Below, one piece after another: positions 465 to 5,670 of a DNA stretch of 6,178 bases. Both the position numbers and the translations under genes were made by a program. The stretch is taken from positions 1 through 6,178 of the forward strand of contig JAFXHW010000137.1 of assembly GCA_017533545.1 (NCBI GenBank), read 5' to 3'. This DNA comes from Clostridia bacterium (GTDB lineage Bacteria > Bacillota_A > Clostridia > Oscillospirales > CAG-272). Numbering within the stretch: position 1 is the first letter of the stretch; the number at the start of each line of letters is the position of its first letter. The notes under the pieces were generated by a model. That model was not told where the DNA came from. It made no database searches and worked only from the letters and a program-made list of their open reading frames with translations.

Positions 465-499
465 AAGGACCGACACGATCGTGTCGGTCCTTTTATTGT
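465..499 (+). terminator. Intrinsic terminator of thrS
   Basis: Bases 465-492 form a perfect 28-base palindrome: 14-base arms meet at a central GATC, with GGACCGACAC opposite GTGTCGGTCC. Allowing for a small loop this gives a stem of about 12 bp. It is followed by a T-rich run (491-499, TTTTATTGT). It lies 10 bases after the thrS stop, as expected for a rho-independent terminator. An A-rich stretch before the stem could let it work weakly in the other direction, but no gene converges on it. Confidence 0.93.
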
Positions 500-549: not shown

Positions 550-578
550 TTGACAAAGCCGACACTTTGTGATAGAAT
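550..578 (+). promoter_or_regulatory. Sigma-A-type promoter of the sigma/LRR fusion gene
   Basis: A perfect -35 hexamer TTGACA (550-555) is separated by 17 bases from the -10 hexamer TAGAAT (573-578, 5 of 6 consensus). Transcription would start near 585, giving a leader of about 60 bases before the ATG at 647. The spacer holds an inverted repeat, ACAAAG (553-558) and CTTTGT (565-570), which overlaps the -35 and could be an operator. This is a housekeeping-type promoter, not an ECF-type one, so the downstream sigma-like protein does not obviously drive its own transcription. Confidence 0.85.
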
Positions 579-646
579 GTATTATATATATCTATATGTA
601 GTGTTAATGCAAGTATCCCATCGTTATGTAACAGAAAGGAACCGAT

Positions 647-2524
647 ATGAACCTTACCGATACTGTTGCTCTCGCACTTAACTCGGACAGCGAAGCCATT
701 GAGCTTTTATACACACAATATAAAAGGCAGGTCTATTACCTCGCGCTCAAACTGATGGGCAATCCCAAGGATGCCTCCAACGTTTTGCAATATACTTTCT
801 TCCAGGCATTTCATAAGCTCGGTGCGCTGAAAAATCCCGAGAATTTTGAGCCCTGGCTTTACATAATCGCATCGGGACGCTCCCGTATGCTCCTTCGTGA
901 AAAATATCCGCTCCGCTTTGCTCCCGAAAATAACAAGCAAAAGCAGTCGAGCGCCAAATTCGAAATAAGAAATACACCCGTGTCCTCTCCCGAAATTGCT
1001 GATGATACCGCAGGCCGCAATGCAGTTTCACAGATCATCGACAAGATGCCCGAGATGACCCGCCTTTCGGTTATGATGTATTTCTACTGCGGCATCAGCG
1101 TCAGCCAGATCGCAAAAGTGCTCTCGTCGGACGACGCGCACATCCGTCAGTATCTCGCCGCAGGTGAGACCCAGCTCAAGGCTGAAATCGAATCGATGTC
1201 CTCGAAGATCCCCTCTCTTGCAGGATACACCGGTGTCGCCGAGGTTGGTACGATCCTCCGCCGCTGCGCGCTTTCGACCGCGATTTCGCCCGAGCTTGAC
1301 GAGGCGATCATCTCAACATCCCTCACTTTGGTTATGGCATCATCGTCCGTACCCACCGACGTTGAAAGTACGTCGGGCACCGACACCCCCGATGTCAAAG
1401 AATCCGACGAGGGCAATTACCGCCGTCTGCGTTCGGCAGCAATCCGCAATCTTATTACCATTGCCGTCGTCATCGTACTTGCGGTATCGATCATTGCCGT
1501 GTCGGTCAACATAATCCGCCGCGCCGCCAACAATCCCCCTATTGATCCCGATATAACCACCACAGATACAGAAGAAGCTACCGTTGACTCGACCACCGAG
1601 TATACCCCCTCGGTAAAGGATCCCACATCCGACACCACCTCTCCCGAAACCGAAAAGGATACCGAGCCCGAAGTTACGACCGAGCCTGAACTTACAACAG
1701 ACACGCCCGTAACCACCGAGCCCGAGGTAACAACCGAAGAGGTAACAACGGAGGCCGAAACCGAGCCCGAGGAGATTGAAGGCTCGTCGATGACCTCGGC
1801 CGAGGCGTCAAAGTCCTTTGTTTGCGATGTTAACGTCAGCAAAAAGACAGTTGTGATCAAAAAATACAGCGGTAATGCCCTCGAAGTTGACATTCCCGCA
1901 TACATCGACGGAATCCCCGTAACCGAGATCGGTGCAAATGCCTTTGCAAACAACACCAAGATCACCAGCGTCAATATCCCCAACTCGGTAAAGCTTATCG
2001 GTATCGGTGCTTTCCAGAACTGTCCTTCGCTCACATCGGTAAGTATTCCCTCCTCGGTAACCGAGATCGGATACTATGCATTCCTCAAGTGTACGAACCT
2101 TTCTTCAATAACTGTCCCCTCGTCGGTTAAATCCATTGGATATTCCGCTTTCCAGAGCACCAAGTGGCTGTACGCTCAGAAGAACGAATTCGTAATCGTC
2201 GGTGACGGCGTTCTTATCAAGTACAACGGTAAGGGCGGCAACGTAGTTATCCCCAACACCGTAAAGAAGATAACAAATGCATTCTATTTTAACAGCAATG
2301 CTGCAACAGTTACCATTCCCTCCTCGGTAACATACATTGATACCTACGCATTCTACTCCTGCTCAAAGCTTACTTCCATCTCCTTCCCCGCATCTGTCAA
2401 GGAAATGGGCAACAATGCCGTTTCGGAATGCAGTAAGCTCACATCGCTGACTGCCCCGAAGGGTTCTGAAGCTGAAAAGTGGATCATGAGCAGTGCATAT
2501 TACAAGCTGTTCATTGCACAATAA
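647..2524 (+). CDS. ECF-like sigma factor fused to a membrane helix and extracellular BspA-type leucine-rich repeats
   Basis: This is a 625-residue multidomain protein. The ATG is set by a good ribosome site (AGAAAGGA, 633-640, six bases upstream). Domains in order: sigma-70 region 2 (about 16-85, with LYTQYKRQVYYLALKLMGN, DASNVLQYTFFQAF and a FEPWLYIIAS recognition helix); sigma region 4 (about 126-183, LPE-like KMPEMTRLSVMMYFY then helix-turn-helix GISVSQIAKVL); a connector (186-258); one transmembrane helix (about 269-290) preceded by the basic stretch RRLRSAAIRN; a Thr/Glu/Pro-rich stalk (about 299-378); and an LRR_5/BspA-like domain (about 392-615) with repeats of the AF..C..L.S..IP.SV type. 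There is no N-terminal signal peptide. Charge bias puts the sigma part in the cytoplasm and the repeats outside. The family picture (inference) is a one-piece surface sensor or adhesin linked to transcription. The acidic and basic contact residues usual in sigma regions 2.2 and 4.2 are partly replaced, so the sigma part may be altered in function. The CoA ligase follows after 27 bases. Domain calls are firm; the role is unknown. Confidence 0.88.
   Translation: MNLTDTVALALNSDSEAIELLYTQYKRQVYYLALKLMGNPKDASNVLQYTFFQAFHKLGALKNPENFEPWLYIIASGRSRMLLREKYPLRFAPENNKQKQSSAKFEIRNTPVSSPEIADDTAGRNAVSQIIDKMPEMTRLSVMMYFYCGISVSQIAKVLSSDDAHIRQYLAAGETQLKAEIESMSSKIPSLAGYTGVAEVGTILRRCALSTAISPELDEAIISTSLTLVMASSSVPTDVESTSGTDTPDVKESDEGNYRRLRSAAIRNLITIAVVIVLAVSIIAVSVNIIRRAANNPPIDPDITTTDTEEATVDSTTEYTPSVKDPTSDTTSPETEKDTEPEVTTEPELTTDTPVTTEPEVTTEEVTTEAETEPEEIEGSSMTSAEASKSFVCDVNVSKKTVVIKKYSGNALEVDIPAYIDGIPVTEIGANAFANNTKITSVNIPNSVKLIGIGAFQNCPSLTSVSIPSSVTEIGYYAFLKCTNLSSITVPSSVKSIGYSAFQSTKWLYAQKNEFVIVGDGVLIKYNGKGGNVVIPNTVKKITNAFYFNSNAATVTIPSSVTYIDTYAFYSCSKLTSISFPASVKEMGNNAVSECSKLTSLTAPKGSEAEKWIMSSAYYKLFIAQ
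1541..1780 (+). repeat. Thr/Glu/Pro-rich stalk with short tandem repeats
   Basis: This stretch encodes residues about 299-378 of the fusion protein, just after the membrane helix. It is nearly all Thr, Glu, Pro, Asp, Ser and Val. VTTE occurs four times and TTEPE twice. At DNA level the 15-base unit beginning GAGGTAACAAC is repeated in tandem at 1724-1738 and 1739-1753, with 13 of 15 bases the same. Such low-complexity acidic Thr-rich segments usually act as extended spacers across the cell wall and can change length by slippage. Confidence 0.8.
1925..2491 (+). repeat. LRR_5/BspA-type leucine-rich repeat array
   Basis: Seven successive units are visible in the protein, each about 23 residues with the pattern (E/S)IG..AF..C..L(T/S)S(V/I).(I/V)P.SV(T/K). 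Residue positions are 427-449, 450-472, 473-495, 496-540, 541-562, 563-585 and 586 to about 615. Unit four is enlarged to 45 residues by an island containing EFVIVGDGVLIKY. Units two, three, six and seven share a cysteine at the same place (C459, C482, C572, C595). An exact 17-base DNA repeat (ATTCCCTCCTCGGTAAC) occurs at 2045-2061 and 2315-2331, the kind of identity that allows recombination between units. These repeats typify surface proteins of gut bacteria that bind host or microbial partners. Confidence 0.85.
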
Positions 2525-2551: not shown

Positions 2552-4189
2552 ATGCCTATTACCGATACACTTATAAAAAACGCCTCGCTGTACGCAGACG
2601 AGGTGGCGCTCGTCGAAATCAACCCCGAAATACGCGAAAAGCGCGGGGTGACCTGGCGCGACTACGAGCTGGTTGAGACCAATCCCGCACAGAGATACCG
2701 CCGCGAGATGACATGGGCATCCTTCAACCGACGTGCAAACCGATTTGCAAACCTGCTTCTTTCCCGCTCGATAACAAAGGGCAAAAAGGTTGCGCTTTTG
2801 CTTATGAACTGCCTCGAATGGCTGCCCATCTACTTCGGTACGCTCAAATCGGGCGCAGTCGTTGTACCCCTCAACTACCGTTACAGCTCGGACGAGATCA
2901 AATATTGCCTCGAGCTTGCCGAAGCCGACGTGCTCGTTTTCGGTCCCGAATTTGTCGGACGAGTTGAAGCGCTTGTAGGCACACTCGGCCGATGCAAGGA
3001 CCTTATCTTTGTCGGTGCCGACTGCCCCTATTTTGCCGAAAGCTACGACATCGTTACCAAGCGTTTCCCCTCAAAGGAGCCCGAGATTCCGCTTGATGAC
3101 AGCGAGGATGCCGCAATTTACTTCTCGTCGGGAACGACGGGATTTCCCAAGGCAATTCTCCATGCGCACCAAAGCCTTGTCTGCTCTGCCGTAACCGAGC
3201 AGAAAAATCATCACCAGAACCGCGACGACAACTTCCTCTGCATTCCTCCCCTCTATCATACGGGCGCAAAAATGCATTGGTTCGGATCGCTTTTGGCAGG
3301 ATCGAAGGCCGTGCTTTTGCGCGGTGTCAAGCCCGAATGGATTCTCAAGGCGGTAAGCGAAGAAAACGTCACCATCGTATGGCTGCTCGTACCCTGGGCG
3401 CAGGATATTCTTGATGCCATTGAGCGCGGCGAGATAAACCTTGATGACTATCACCTTGATCAATGGCGACTGATGCATATCGGTGCTCAGCCCGTGCCTC
3501 CAAGCCTTATCACCCGCTGGAAGCAGTATTTTCCTCACCACGATTACGATACGAACTACGGACTTTCCGAATCTATCGGCCCCGGATGCATACATCTCGG
3601 AATCGAGAATATACATAAAGTTGGAGCTATCGGAATTGCCGGATACGGTTGGGAGAACATGATTGCCGACGAAAACGGCAACGAAGTGCCCGACGGCGAT
3701 GTCGGCGAGCTCTGCATCAAGGGCCCCGGCGTTATGAAATGCTACTACCGCGACGAGGAGGCCACAAACGCCGTGCTTAAAAACGGCTGGCTGTTCACCG
3801 GCGATATGGCAATGCGCGACAGCGACGGATTTATCTATCTTGTCGACCGCAAAAAGGACGTTATCATCACGGGAGGGGAAAATCTGTATCCCGTGCAGAT
3901 CGAGGATTTCCTCCGTTCATGCGAGCATATCAAGGACGTTGCGGTAATCGGTCTTCCCGATGCCAGACTCGGCGAGATAGCGGCTGCCATCATCGAGCTT
4001 AAAGAGGGTCACAGCATGACCGAAAAGGACGTTGAGGCCTTCTGCGCAGGAATGCCTCGCTATAAGCGTCCGAGAAAGATCATTTTCGACGAAGTACCCC
4101 GCAATCCTACCGGCAAGATAGAAAAGCCCAAGCTCCGCGCAAAATACTGCGGAAATGAAACGCTCGTCGATTTGCAGATCAAAAAATAA
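2552..4189 (+). CDS. Class I adenylate-forming enzyme, acyl-CoA synthetase type
   Basis: This 545-residue protein is a member of the ANL superfamily: it activates a carboxylic acid with ATP to an acyl-adenylate and probably passes it to coenzyme A. Visible core motifs in order: phosphate-binding loop SSGTTGFPK (192-200); GAQPVP (311-316); YGLSE (336-340); the TGD motif with Asp418; the hinge VDRKKDVIITGGENLYP (431-447); and PRNPTGKIEKPKLR with the predicted catalytic Lys522. Length and motif order are complete and normal for a stand-alone CoA ligase with no carrier domain. The substrate cannot be read from sequence; fatty, aryl or other acids are possible. Residues 21-60 contain a 20-residue tandem duplication (VEINP and VETNP start the copies, each with a T-W pair). 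The start is 27 bases after the previous stop. The only ribosome-site-like run (GAAAGG, 2531-2536) is 15 bases away, which is unusually far. The gap has no terminator, so co-transcription with the fusion gene is likely. Confidence 0.93.
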   Translation: MPITDTLIKNASLYADEVALVEINPEIREKRGVTWRDYELVETNPAQRYRREMTWASFNRRANRFANLLLSRSITKGKKVALLLMNCLEWLPIYFGTLKSGAVVVPLNYRYSSDEIKYCLELAEADVLVFGPEFVGRVEALVGTLGRCKDLIFVGADCPYFAESYDIVTKRFPSKEPEIPLDDSEDAAIYFSSGTTGFPKAILHAHQSLVCSAVTEQKNHHQNRDDNFLCIPPLYHTGAKMHWFGSLLAGSKAVLLRGVKPEWILKAVSEENVTIVWLLVPWAQDILDAIERGEINLDDYHLDQWRLMHIGAQPVPPSLITRWKQYFPHHDYDTNYGLSESIGPGCIHLGIENIHKVGAIGIAGYGWENMIADENGNEVPDGDVGELCIKGPGVMKCYYRDEEATNAVLKNGWLFTGDMAMRDSDGFIYLVDRKKDVIITGGENLYPVQIEDFLRSCEHIKDVAVIGLPDARLGEIAAAIIELKEGHSMTEKDVEAFCAGMPRYKRPRKIIFDEVPRNPTGKIEKPKLRAKYCGNETLVDLQIKK

Positions 4190-4261: not shown

Positions 4262-4519
4262 ATGGCAAACAGCAAAAGGATAGCAAATATAATAGCATCG
4301 CACCGCATCTCGGCGGGTTATACGCAAGCAAAGCTCGCCGAAATTGTCGGTGTATCCGTCGGAACCGTTCAAGCCTGGGAAAGAGGATCTTCTCTTCCCT
4401 GCCTTGCAAATGCCCGACTGCTCGGCAAAATATTCGACGCTCCGATATCCGATTTTACCTTCGATAAATCACCCGATTATTCGAAAATAAGTCCAAATCA
4501 TAGCAATTCACCCTTCTGA
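4262..4519 (+). CDS. Small XRE/Cro-C1 family DNA-binding protein
   Basis: This 85-residue protein is essentially one helix-turn-helix domain. Residues 7-60 match the HTH_3 pattern: IASHRISAGYTQAKLAEIVG (helices 1 and 2) then VSVGTVQAWERGSSLP (recognition helix and the typical W-E-R-G turn), followed by a helix around LANARLLGKIFDAPISDF. The last 20 residues are polar (Ser, Asn, Pro, Lys) and look unstructured; no sensor, enzyme or dimer domain is visible. The ATG has a TAAGGA ribosome site ten bases upstream (4246-4251). No convincing -35 hexamer lies between the preceding terminator and the start, although TATA-like hexamers are present at 4237-4247, so it may rely on read-through or a weak promoter. 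No toxin partner is adjacent. The target is unknown; it could regulate itself or the following genes. Confidence 0.88.
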   Translation: MANSKRIANIIASHRISAGYTQAKLAEIVGVSVGTVQAWERGSSLPCLANARLLGKIFDAPISDFTFDKSPDYSKISPNHSNSPF

Positions 4520-4566: not shown

Positions 4567-4621
4567 AAATAAAAAAATTTTCTGAAAAACCTATTGACAA
4601 AACGATTTTTTTTGCTATAAT
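4567..4621 (+). promoter_or_regulatory. Strong promoter of the Rrf2-rubrerythrin operon, with UP-like A/T tract
   Basis: This is a perfect -35 TTGACA (4594-4599), a 16-base spacer and a perfect -10 TATAAT (4616-4621). TG at 4613-4614 makes it an extended -10. An A7-T4 run with flanking A/T (4567-4581) sits about 47-61 bases before the expected start near 4628, where UP elements contact the RNA polymerase alpha subunit. No other promoter in the window scores as well, which suggests strong transcription held in check by a repressor. Confidence 0.92.
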
Positions 4622-4628
4622 GATTATA

Positions 4629-4641
4629 GACTATTTTAGTG
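4629..4641 (+). promoter_or_regulatory. Putative IscR/Rrf2-type operator
   Basis: GACTATTTTAGTG fits the core of the known E. coli IscR type 1 site (GACT, five bases RWWWY, AGTC) at every position but the last. Within it ACTA-TTT-TAGT is a perfect inverted repeat. The flanks match the longer consensus only partly. It lies just downstream of the -10, over the expected transcription start, a classic place for repression. The first gene of the operon encodes an Rrf2-family protein, so autorepression is the natural inference. Confidence 0.6.
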
Positions 4642-4653
4642 AACATTAACGCA

Positions 4654-4659
4654 AAGGAG
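4654..4659 (+). promoter_or_regulatory. Ribosome binding site that fixes the Rrf2 start
   Basis: AAGGAG lies six bases before the ATG at 4666. A longer in-frame reading from the GTG at 4639 would place this site inside the coding region and would start on top of the operator and transcription start, so it is not used. The resulting N-terminus MRVTREIDYALR is the standard Rrf2 opening. Confidence 0.9.
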
Positions 4660-4665
4660 TTTAAT

Positions 4666-5091
4666 ATGCGCGTCACAAGAGAGATTGATTATGCATTGCG
4701 CATAATGAACTGCCTGGCCACTAAGTCTGATGCAAACACCAGCGTAAACGCAAGTACCATTTCAGAAACGATGGTCGTTCCGCAGCGCTTTACGTTGAAG
4801 ATACTCCACAAACTGTCCCAGGCGGGGCTGGTAAAATCCTATAAAGGAACAGCCGGCGGCTACGCGCTCGCCATTCCTGCCGATCAGATAAGCATACTGA
4901 GTATCGTCGAATGTATAGACGGGCCAATCGCGATAAACCAATGTCTCGAAAAGGATTGTCCCTGCACCCGCATGGATATGCAAAAGCACAACTGCTATTT
5001 TCACCTGCTGTTCAGGGAGATCAACGATTCCATTTCGGAAAAACTCGGCAAAATCACTTTGGCAGATTCACTACCCCAAAATCAAAATTAA
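4666..5091 (+). CDS. Rrf2-family transcriptional regulator, probable Fe-S sensor
   Basis: This 141-residue protein is typical in length for Rrf2/IscR regulators. The winged helix-turn-helix occupies residues 1 to about 75: MRVTREIDYALRIMNCLA, then a helix pair ending VVPQRFTLKILHKLSQAGLV, then the wing YKGTAGGYALA, which is a family hallmark. A dimerisation helix follows. The sensor loop contains C93, C98, C100 and C110 (pattern C-x4-C-x-C-x9-C), richer than and spaced differently from the three cysteines of E. coli IscR. Some of these cysteines probably hold a [2Fe-2S] or [4Fe-4S] cluster, so the protein would sense redox state, NO or iron-sulfur status in the cytoplasm. It is the first gene after a strong promoter with an IscR-like palindrome and is followed 30 bases later by rubrerythrin. 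An autoregulated repressor of the operon is the likely role (inference). Confidence 0.92.
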   Translation: MRVTREIDYALRIMNCLATKSDANTSVNASTISETMVVPQRFTLKILHKLSQAGLVKSYKGTAGGYALAIPADQISILSIVECIDGPIAINQCLEKDCPCTRMDMQKHNCYFHLLFREINDSISEKLGKITLADSLPQNQN

Positions 5092-5121
5092 TTATTTCTA
5101 AATTAAAAGGAGAATATTACT

Positions 5122-5670
5122 ATGAAAAAGTTCAGATGCAAAGTTTGCGGTTACGTTCATGAAGGCGACAGCGCTCCCGAAAGATGCCCCCAGTGCAAGG
5201 TTCCCGCTGAAAAGTTCGAAGAAATTAAAGAAGATAAGCTCACTTGGGCTGCAGAGCACGTTGTAGGCGTTGGCAAGGACGCTCCCGAAGAAATCGTTAT
5301 GGGTCTTCGCGCTAACTTCGAAGGCGAGTGCAGCGAAGTAGGTATGTACCTCGCTATGGCACGCGTTGCCGCAAGAGAAGGCTATCCCGAGATCGCTCTC
5401 TACTGGGAAAAGGCAGCTTTCGAAGAGGCAGAGCATGCAGCTAAGTTTGCTGAGCTCCTCGGCGAAGTTGTAACCGATTCCACCAAGGAAAACCTCACTC
5501 TCCGCGTTGCTGCTGAAAACGGTGCAACCGCAGGTAAGTTTGAGCTTGCAAAGATGGCAAAAGAGCTCGGTCTCGACGCTATCCACGACACCGTTCACGA
5601 AATGGCTCGCGACGAAGCAAGACACGGCAAGGCTTTCGCAGGTCTTCTCGAAAGATACTTCGGCAAATAA
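5122..5670 (+). CDS. rbr: Reverse rubrerythrin (N-terminal rubredoxin domain plus diiron domain)
   Basis: This 182-residue cytoplasmic non-haem iron protein reduces hydrogen peroxide to water, and possibly oxygen, in anaerobes, taking electrons through a rubredoxin-like centre. Residues 1-35 are the rubredoxin domain: CKVCG (C6, C9) and CPQC (C22, C25) bind one iron. Residues about 55-182 form the four-helix diiron domain. Candidate ligands are Glu69, E102-x-x-H105, Glu132 and E165-x-x-H168. Classical rubrerythrin has the rubredoxin domain at the C-terminus; the N-terminal order here is the 'reverse' form known from Clostridia. The start has AAGGAG (5107-5112) nine bases upstream. No separate promoter is evident in the 30-base gap, so it is probably transcribed with the Rrf2 gene and controlled by it. 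The gene looks complete. Confidence 0.95.

What the first reader, a model, noticed from the sequence alone, without database searches (positions are those of the whole stretch)
647..2524. Sigma factor, membrane helix and extracellular LRR sensor in a single polypeptide
Sigma regions 2 and 4 (residues about 16-183) are joined through one transmembrane helix (269-290) and an acidic Thr-rich stalk to a BspA-like LRR domain. Sigma control across the membrane normally uses a separate membrane anti-sigma factor. Here sensor and sigma module are one chain and no anti-sigma gene is adjacent. Either the sigma domain is held at the membrane and freed by proteolysis when the LRR domain binds a ligand, or it works while tethered. 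ECF sigma factors with C-terminal extensions, some membrane-bound, are known; I do not recall the LRR_5 combination as a characterised system.
Basis: partly seen in the sequence, partly recalled or inferred. Interest (0 to 1): 0.75.

Follow-up and report, generated by a model that had tools for sequence, protein, structure and literature searches.

The report
Membrane receptor with sigma-like inner domain
A clostridia-like gene encodes one protein that carries a leucine-rich repeat domain outside the cell and a transcription-sigma-factor-like domain inside; the arrangement is a new variant of a known single-chain design, and in this branch the sigma part has lost the residues that normally read promoter DNA.

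Summary
In detail: window 647-2524 encodes one 625-aa chain of ECF-type sigma2-sigma4 module, one membrane helix, acidic Thr-rich stalk and LRR_5 domain. Thirteen further proteins, 38-62% identical, align end to end, so a frameshift is excluded. None of the six neighbours scanned is an anti-sigma factor.

The arrangement is not isolated. Related clostridial genomes hold proteins that join an ECF sigma module, a membrane helix and a variable ectodomain (LRR, WG, Big_2, SH3 and others); the LRR label changes at least three times on the tree. Sigma-TM-ectodomain chains are published (ECF52 SCO4117, IutY).

Basic at 174: 0 of 15 against 173 of 173 comparators; Arg169: 1 of 15 against 169 of 173. 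Acidic residues flanking Gln48 in region 2.2 are lost too, while sigma2 is the best conserved part (75% mean identity).

Most likely a one-chain outside-in receptor whose sigma-like module acts by protein contact (sigma mimicry or atypical RNA polymerase binding), not ordinary -35 reading. Anatomy is shown; mechanism is inferred.

The parts
465..492 (+). intrinsic-terminator-like hairpin after thrS; separates the gene from upstream transcription
   Evidence: 12-pair stem, 7 G-C, loop 4, T-rich tail (12 such sites in the region, 5.3 expected from shuffles)
550..578 (+). housekeeping (sigma-A type) promoter-like site TTGACA-17-TAGAAT, 11 of 12 matches, with TG before the -10
   Evidence: consensus match only (7 found in the region, 5.4 expected from shuffles)
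633..640 (+). ribosome-binding-like AGAAAGGA
   Evidence: read from the sequence
647..2524 (+). single-chain sigma-like / membrane helix / LRR receptor, 625 aa
692..904 (+). sigma2 module, residues 16-86; clade signature LQYTFFQAFH; Gln48 kept, acidic residues at 45 and 49 lost
   Evidence: Sigma70_r2 37.9 bits; 0.75 mean pairwise identity in 14 proteins; residue counts
1001..1198 (+). sigma4 fold, residues 119-184
   Evidence: Sigma70_r4_2 18.9 bits, below its cut-off; TIGR02937 to residue 179; fold match to SigW over 1-184
1133..1180 (+). former recognition helix of sigma4, residues 163-178, lacking the usual T.KSR....R residues
1211..1345 (+). helical segment after sigma4, residues 189-233, no known family
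   Evidence: predicted helices 189-193, 197-209, 215-233; no Pfam hit
1451..1519 (+). single membrane helix, residues 269-291; four Arg just before it, two Arg at its outer end, then the acidic stalk
   Evidence: hydropathy; predicted helix 255-295
1532..1774 (+). acidic Thr-rich stalk, residues 296-376
   Evidence: composition of 294-388; pLDDT under 50 at 296-376
1796..2521 (+). BspA-type LRR_5 ectodomain, residues 384-625
2552..4189 (+). acyl-CoA ligase-like gene 27 bases downstream, possibly co-transcribed; not specific to the system
   Evidence: AMP-binding 239.7 bits; also next door in L001, but matches at E <= 1e-140 in 181 of 395 family genomes, and none of 10 such loci inspected has the receptor beside it

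Best explanation
The gene makes a one-chain, single-pass membrane receptor (N-terminus inside, LRR outside). SHOWN by sequence and prediction: sigma2-sigma4-like module, helical segment 189-233, membrane helix, disordered acidic stalk and LRR domain, kept as one unit in 15 proteins (window, P0002-P0014, L021). INFERRED: the topology; that the LRR domain binds an extracellular ligand or surface; that the signal (proteolysis in or near the membrane helix, or a conformational change) frees or exposes the sigma-like module. INFERRED, and the step to which I commit: because this clade has lost the -35-reading residues of sigma4 and the acidic residues beside Gln48 in region 2.2 while keeping sigma2 as its most conserved part, the module acts by a protein contact (sequestering an anti-sigma factor as PhyR does, or binding RNA polymerase in an atypical way) and not as an ordinary promoter-reading ECF sigma factor.
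Confidence: 0.45

Rival explanations
1. A genuine ECF sigma factor tethered to the membrane, released by regulated proteolysis when the LRR domain is engaged, with changed -35 specificity or reliance on the -10 element.
For: Sigma profile TIGR02937 above cut-off; sigma2 including the -10-reading part strongly conserved; Lys/Arg167 and Gln48 kept; published single-chain precedents IutY (cleaved by Prc and RseP) and ECF52 SCO4117 (PMC8999054 section 3.5, part 1 of 2; PMC5826349 passages). Site-2 protease family M50 is in 8 of 8 genomes searched, but also in 14 of 14 controls, so uninformative.
Against: Loss of the recognition-helix residues and of the acidic residues in region 2.2; sigma4 profile below cut-off. 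The promoter-like site of the gene itself is of housekeeping type, so autoregulation, common for ECF genes (recalled), is not evident.
Confidence: 0.37
2. A surface LRR adhesin whose cytoplasmic sigma-like module is a decayed, inert membrane anchor.
For: Loss of DNA-contacting residues; LRR_5 proteins are common surface proteins (recalled).
Against: Sigma2 is the most conserved part of the protein, more than the LRR domain, with clade-wide invariant residues; decay would not leave it so.
Confidence: 0.12
3. An artefact: two genes joined by a sequencing error or a chimeric contig.
For: No whole genome is held for the window, so its source cannot be checked.
Against: Thirteen other proteins and L021 span the junction in one frame; P0001, 99% identical, stands for 12 member sequences.
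Confidence: 0.01

Closest known systems
ECF52 sigma factors (SCO4117 of Streptomyces coelicolor)
   Same: One chain: ECF sigma domain, membrane region, low-complexity stalk, extracytoplasmic binding domain (PMC5826349, abstract and passages).
   Different: ECF52 has a zinc-finger domain and a carbohydrate-binding module and is described as exclusive to Actinobacteria; here no zinc finger is matched, the ectodomain is LRR, the relatives are clostridial and the sigma4 helix is altered.
IutY of Pseudomonas putida (ECF243)
   Same: Sigma factor fused in one chain to its membrane-bound regulatory part (PMC8999054 section 3.5.3).
   Different: IutY carries its anti-sigma factor as the fused part and responds to the siderophore aerobactin; here no anti-sigma family is matched.
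Clostridial sigma-TM-ectodomain proteins found here (e.g. L056, L058, L059, L086, L014, L020)
   Same: Same order of parts; all six named show LRR motifs (L020 is listed there as the identical ORF of L002), and LRR_5 matches 9 of the 40 proteins scanned (which does not name the members).
   Different: They keep the canonical recognition helix and most keep region 2.2, and many carry a G.KLY..P-like motif and an Ala/Gly-rich segment before the membrane helix that the window clade lacks; the window clade stands apart at 100/100 support.
PhyR (sigma mimic, Alphaproteobacteria)
   Same: Sigma2- and sigma4-like subdomains in a protein that does not act as a sigma factor (PMC4598750 passage); moderate fold match.
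   Different: PhyR has a receiver domain; the window protein has a membrane helix and LRR domain and no receiver-domain match.
BspA-type LRR_5 proteins
   Different: The titles of those entries name leucine-rich repeat or cell-surface proteins, not a sigma module.

Membership tests
ECF sigma factors | Sigma2-sigma4 domain recognised by profile | tested here: met
   TIGR02937 60.7 bits, cut-off 42.9; Sigma70_r2 37.9, cut-off 24
ECF sigma factors | Sigma4 region with canonical recognition-helix residues | tested here: not met
   Sigma70_r4_2 18.9 bits, below 25.7; 21.7 bits for residues 121-268 alone; Arg169 1 of 15, basic 174 0 of 15
ECF sigma factors | Core RNA polymerase binding | not testable with these tools
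   Gln48 kept, acidic 45 and 49 lost; direction unclear without an experiment
ECF52 | Membrane region plus low-complexity stalk plus extracytoplasmic domain in the same chain | tested here: met
ECF52 | Zinc-finger domain after sigma4 | tested here: not met
   No zinc-finger match in residues 184-268 of the window or the like segments of L001 and L021 (one unrelated hit at E 0.21 in L021)
ECF52 | Carbohydrate-binding module | tested here: not met
   LRR_5 instead; no carbohydrate-binding family among the matches
IutY-type (ECF243) fusions | Fused anti-sigma factor | tested here: not met
   No such Pfam match; a fold-level resemblance of residues 189-233 was barely tested
PhyR-type sigma mimics | Receiver domain next to the sigma-like domain | tested here: not met
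   No receiver-domain match
PhyR-type sigma mimics | Sigma-like module that binds an anti-sigma factor and not promoters | not testable with these tools
   Loss of promoter-reading residues is suggestive only
ECF262 (Ruminococcus albus type, with regulatory extension) | Membership by the published group profile | not tested
   Group named in Table 2 of PMC8999054; the classification paper is not held
LRR_5 (BspA type) | Pfam LRR_5 above cut-off and LRR fold | tested here: met

The most novel reading that the evidence does not exclude
A transmembrane receptor whose intracellular output domain is a sigma-factor mimic: an extracellular LRR sensor coupled in one chain to a sigma-like module that no longer reads promoters but competes for an anti-sigma factor or for RNA polymerase. 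It would be sigma mimicry wired directly to an outside sensor, without a two-component system, in clostridia.
Probability: 0.33. Interest if true: 0.82.

Novelty: new variant of a known kind. Interest (0 to 1): 0.56.

Why it matters
Outside-in control of ECF sigma factors is most often split between a sigma factor and a membrane anti-sigma factor. A clostridial branch that puts sensor, membrane helix and sigma-like module in one chain, and has then altered the promoter-reading part, gives a compact natural test of which sigma surfaces are needed for signalling. The wider class (sigma module, membrane helix, variable ectodomain; found in 19 of 295 sampled genomes of one order) points to a modular family of one-chain membrane receptors; the one member with a name among the 120 listed is called simply a sigma-70 family RNA polymerase sigma factor.

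Tried and rejected
Frameshift or chimera: rejected by homologues.

A functional pair with the downstream acyl-CoA ligase: the same pair stands in L001, but the ligase has matches at E <= 1e-140 in 181 of 395 family genomes; in 10 of those loci (L098-L107, about 1-1.5 kb of flank, ORFs of 120 aa or more judged by eye from their first 70 residues) the receptor is not beside it; and G181, which has a clade member, has no ligase match at E <= 1e-60 and a cation-transporter-like gene (named by eye) downstream. So the pair stands in 2 of 3 loci with context but is not specific.

An on-board anti-sigma domain in residues 184-268: no Pfam match; the fold searches barely tested this part, so it is neither shown nor excluded. 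Site-2 protease as evidence for proteolysis: in 8 of 8 genomes but in 14 of 14 controls. A free-standing relative of the clade's sigma module: none at E <= 1e-20 among 7466 candidates of about 171-544 aa. The first genome scan with the single sequence found no relative; the second, with alignment A2, found 5 loci. The housekeeping-type promoter site was not seen in the same place in L001.

Literature: searches for sigma factor with LRR, BspA or LRR_5, membrane-tethered sigma factor, ECF with C-terminal extension and Firmicutes, and ECF with Oscillospiraceae listed no paper that, by title and start of abstract, describes this combination; the listed papers were not opened for this. Only open-licence PMC papers are held, and the main ECF classification paper is not. 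Other papers seen: PMC8999054 (outline, sections 2.2 and 3.5 part 1 of 2, figures and tables), PMC5826349, PMC4598750, PMC7406223 and PMC8103513 (passages only).

Recalled and from no call: which residues of region 2.2 touch RNA polymerase, which recognition-helix residues touch -35 DNA, that region 2.4 reads -10. PhyR's own residues at these positions were not compared. Rows dropped: from the class alignment A3 I left out L016-L018 (long sigma ORFs without a membrane helix by hydropathy), L080 (cut by the contig end), the short free ECFs, and further matches that were not fetched whole.

Full report
WHAT IS THERE. The window carries, on the + strand, the 3' end of a threonyl-tRNA synthetase gene (2-454), a terminator-like hairpin (465-492), a housekeeping-type promoter-like site (550-578), the gene in question (647-2524, 625 aa), an acyl-CoA ligase-like gene (2552-4189), a small HTH protein (4262-4519), an Rrf2-type regulator (4639-5091), a rubrerythrin-like protein (5122-5670) and the start of a weakly DUF485-like protein. 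None of the six neighbours scanned matches an anti-sigma family. Overlapping ORFs on the - strand were listed but not searched further.

ANATOMY. The 625-aa chain has an ECF sigma module (TIGR02937, residues 16-179, 60.7 bits against a cut-off of 42.9; Sigma70_r2 37.9 bits; Sigma70_r4_2 18.9 bits, below its cut-off), one membrane helix (hydropathy maximum 269-287), an acidic Thr-rich stalk (28 acidic, 2 basic of 95 residues) and an LRR_5 domain (145.8 bits). The model of the whole chain (14 rows) has mean pLDDT 77 and pTM 0.44; the stalk (296-376) is under 50 and most of the LRR part is above 90. The model of residues 1-293 (33 rows) has pTM 0.77; helices 189-193, 197-209 and 215-233 after sigma4 lie in 10-residue blocks of 88-95 pLDDT up to residue 230 (79-89). 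That segment has no Pfam match. Topology with the N-terminus inside is inferred from four Arg just before the helix and from the nature of the two ends; two Arg at the outer end weaken the charge argument.

CONSERVATION. A search of 5.8 billion proteins with residues 1-310 gave 15 proteins. Fourteen have sigma module and LRR (34-99% identity to the searched part); 13 of these carry both Pfam labels and P0011 only LRR_5, but it aligns end to end. The fifteenth (P0015, 28%) is a different sigma fusion. P0002-P0014 align with the window protein at 38-62% identity. A further member, L021 in genome G181, came from a genome search. The clade is rare: in samples of 295 genomes of the order, 395 of the family and 391 of the class of G001, only G001 and G181 match the clade profile below E 1e-50. 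Mean pairwise identity in the 14 aligned proteins is 0.75 for sigma2, 0.49 for sigma4, 0.42 for residues 184-262, 0.60 for the membrane helix and 0.65 for the LRR part. No relative of about 171-544 aa was found at E <= 1e-20, so this sigma module is known here only in the fused form.

THE WIDER CLASS. Of 295 genomes of the order of G001 (the genome of L001), 31 had a match to the clade profile at E <= 1e-20; of the 38 places listed, 26 lie in open frames of 350 aa or more. In the class-wide sample (391 genomes, E <= 1e-18) only 10 of 74 places, in 7 genomes, lie in such long frames; the rest look like free ECF genes. With a profile of the wider class (alignment A5), 23 places in 16 of 295 genomes match to model position 289 or beyond, through the membrane helix, and three more genomes (G082, G094, G097) stop at 272-273 but show a hydrophobic helix: 26 places in 19 genomes. 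Six of these places are rows of the model itself, one (G125) holds a stop codon, and at most 7 candidates per genome were scored. Of 40 full proteins compared, 38 match Sigma70_r2 and 38 Sigma70_r4_2, 9 LRR_5, 5 LRR_8, 4 WG repeats, 2 Big_2, and single ones Lipase_3, SH3_3 and others; 39 of 40 have a hydrophobic window of 1.6 or more starting at residues 200-420, the exception being L004. These 40 were chosen by me for long frames. A search with L056 found 506 long relatives at E <= 1e-10 among the 7993 candidates scored; 6 of the 120 listed, L056 itself included, carry LRR_5. On a tree of 62 sigma domains the window clade (9 rows) is one group (100/100) on a long branch (1.14), and the label 'fused to LRR' needs 5 changes, at least 3 forced by well-supported branches: LRR was gained or lost more than once. 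The bootstrap had not fully settled and deep branches are weak.

WHAT IS ODD ABOUT THE WINDOW CLADE. Against 173 comparators (36 class proteins, 121 long proteins free ECFs from the same loci; most of the 121 are close kin, and L056 stands in two sets) the 15 clade members have lost Thr165 (166 of 173 against 0 of 15), Ser168 (166 against 0), Arg169 (169 against 1), the basic residue at 174 (173 against 0), the acidic residue at 45 (171 against 2) and at 49 (167 against 0; Tyr in 14 of 15). They keep Gln48 (170 of 173; 15 of 15) and Lys/Arg167 (15 of 15). The mean net charge of residues 163-178 is +0.67 against +3.8 in 18 class members (sequences are kin, so its p-value is not used here). That these residues contact -35 DNA or the polymerase in ordinary sigma factors is recalled knowledge. 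The pattern (sigma2 tightly held, sigma4 surface let go, clade signature LQYTFFQAFH) argues for a changed role rather than decay. Against this stands the strong conservation of region 2.3/2.4 (0.79).

HOW IT PROBABLY WORKS. Shown: parts and their order, conservation, loss of residues. Inferred: outside sensing by the LRR domain; transmission by proteolysis or conformational change; output by protein contact. Published single-chain precedents support the first two steps in principle: IutY is cleaved by Prc and RseP, and for ECF52 SCO4117 release from the membrane is proposed (PMC8999054, sections and tables; PMC5826349, passages). PhyR is a published case of a sigma-like domain that does not act as a sigma factor (PMC4598750, passages). 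I put 0.45 on output by protein contact, 0.37 on a genuine released sigma factor, 0.12 on an inert anchor.

NEIGHBOURHOOD. The downstream ligase is also downstream in L001, but it is a common gene (181 of 395 family genomes), so I do not make it part of the system.

VERDICT. A real and conserved protein, a new variant of the known single-chain membrane sigma design. Its interest lies less in the LRR combination than in the altered sigma module.

Noticed in passing
window 4594-4621 and 4639-5670: An Rrf2-type regulator gene with a perfect sigma-A promoter-like site (TTGACA-16-TATAAT, TG before the -10) is followed by a rubrerythrin-like gene: probably an ordinary oxidative-stress unit.
   Followed up: no
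L019 577-2313 (-), 2792-4450 (+), 4464-7787 (+); L014 3131-4963 and 4960-8160 (+): In genome G003, sigma-TM-Thr-stalk genes stand next to genes for large LRR-like proteins (by eye, not scanned) with an N-terminal hydrophobic segment, in L014 overlapping by four bases; a possible sensor-and-partner pair.
   Followed up: no
L004 8001-9722: A Muribaculaceae contig has one ORF joining an ECF sigma module, a hydrophobic segment at about 180-198 and, it seems, a beta-barrel domain (one of the 40 proteins matches OMP_b-brl; the row is not named there); its sigma4 helix is also unusual. Could be a true fusion or two genes run together.
   Followed up: partly
L016 0-3053 (-), and matches in frames of 1049-1155 aa (e.g. 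G106, G146, G190): Another long type: sigma module at the N-terminus of proteins of about 1000 aa; L016 (cut by the contig end) shows no membrane helix by the hydropathy test.
   Followed up: no
L052, L056, L072, L081 and others, about residues 190-215: Many of the wider class share a motif like G.KLY..P..(L/F)L..L just after sigma4, followed by an Ala/Gly-rich segment and the membrane helix; it may be a built-in inhibitory element.
   Followed up: partly
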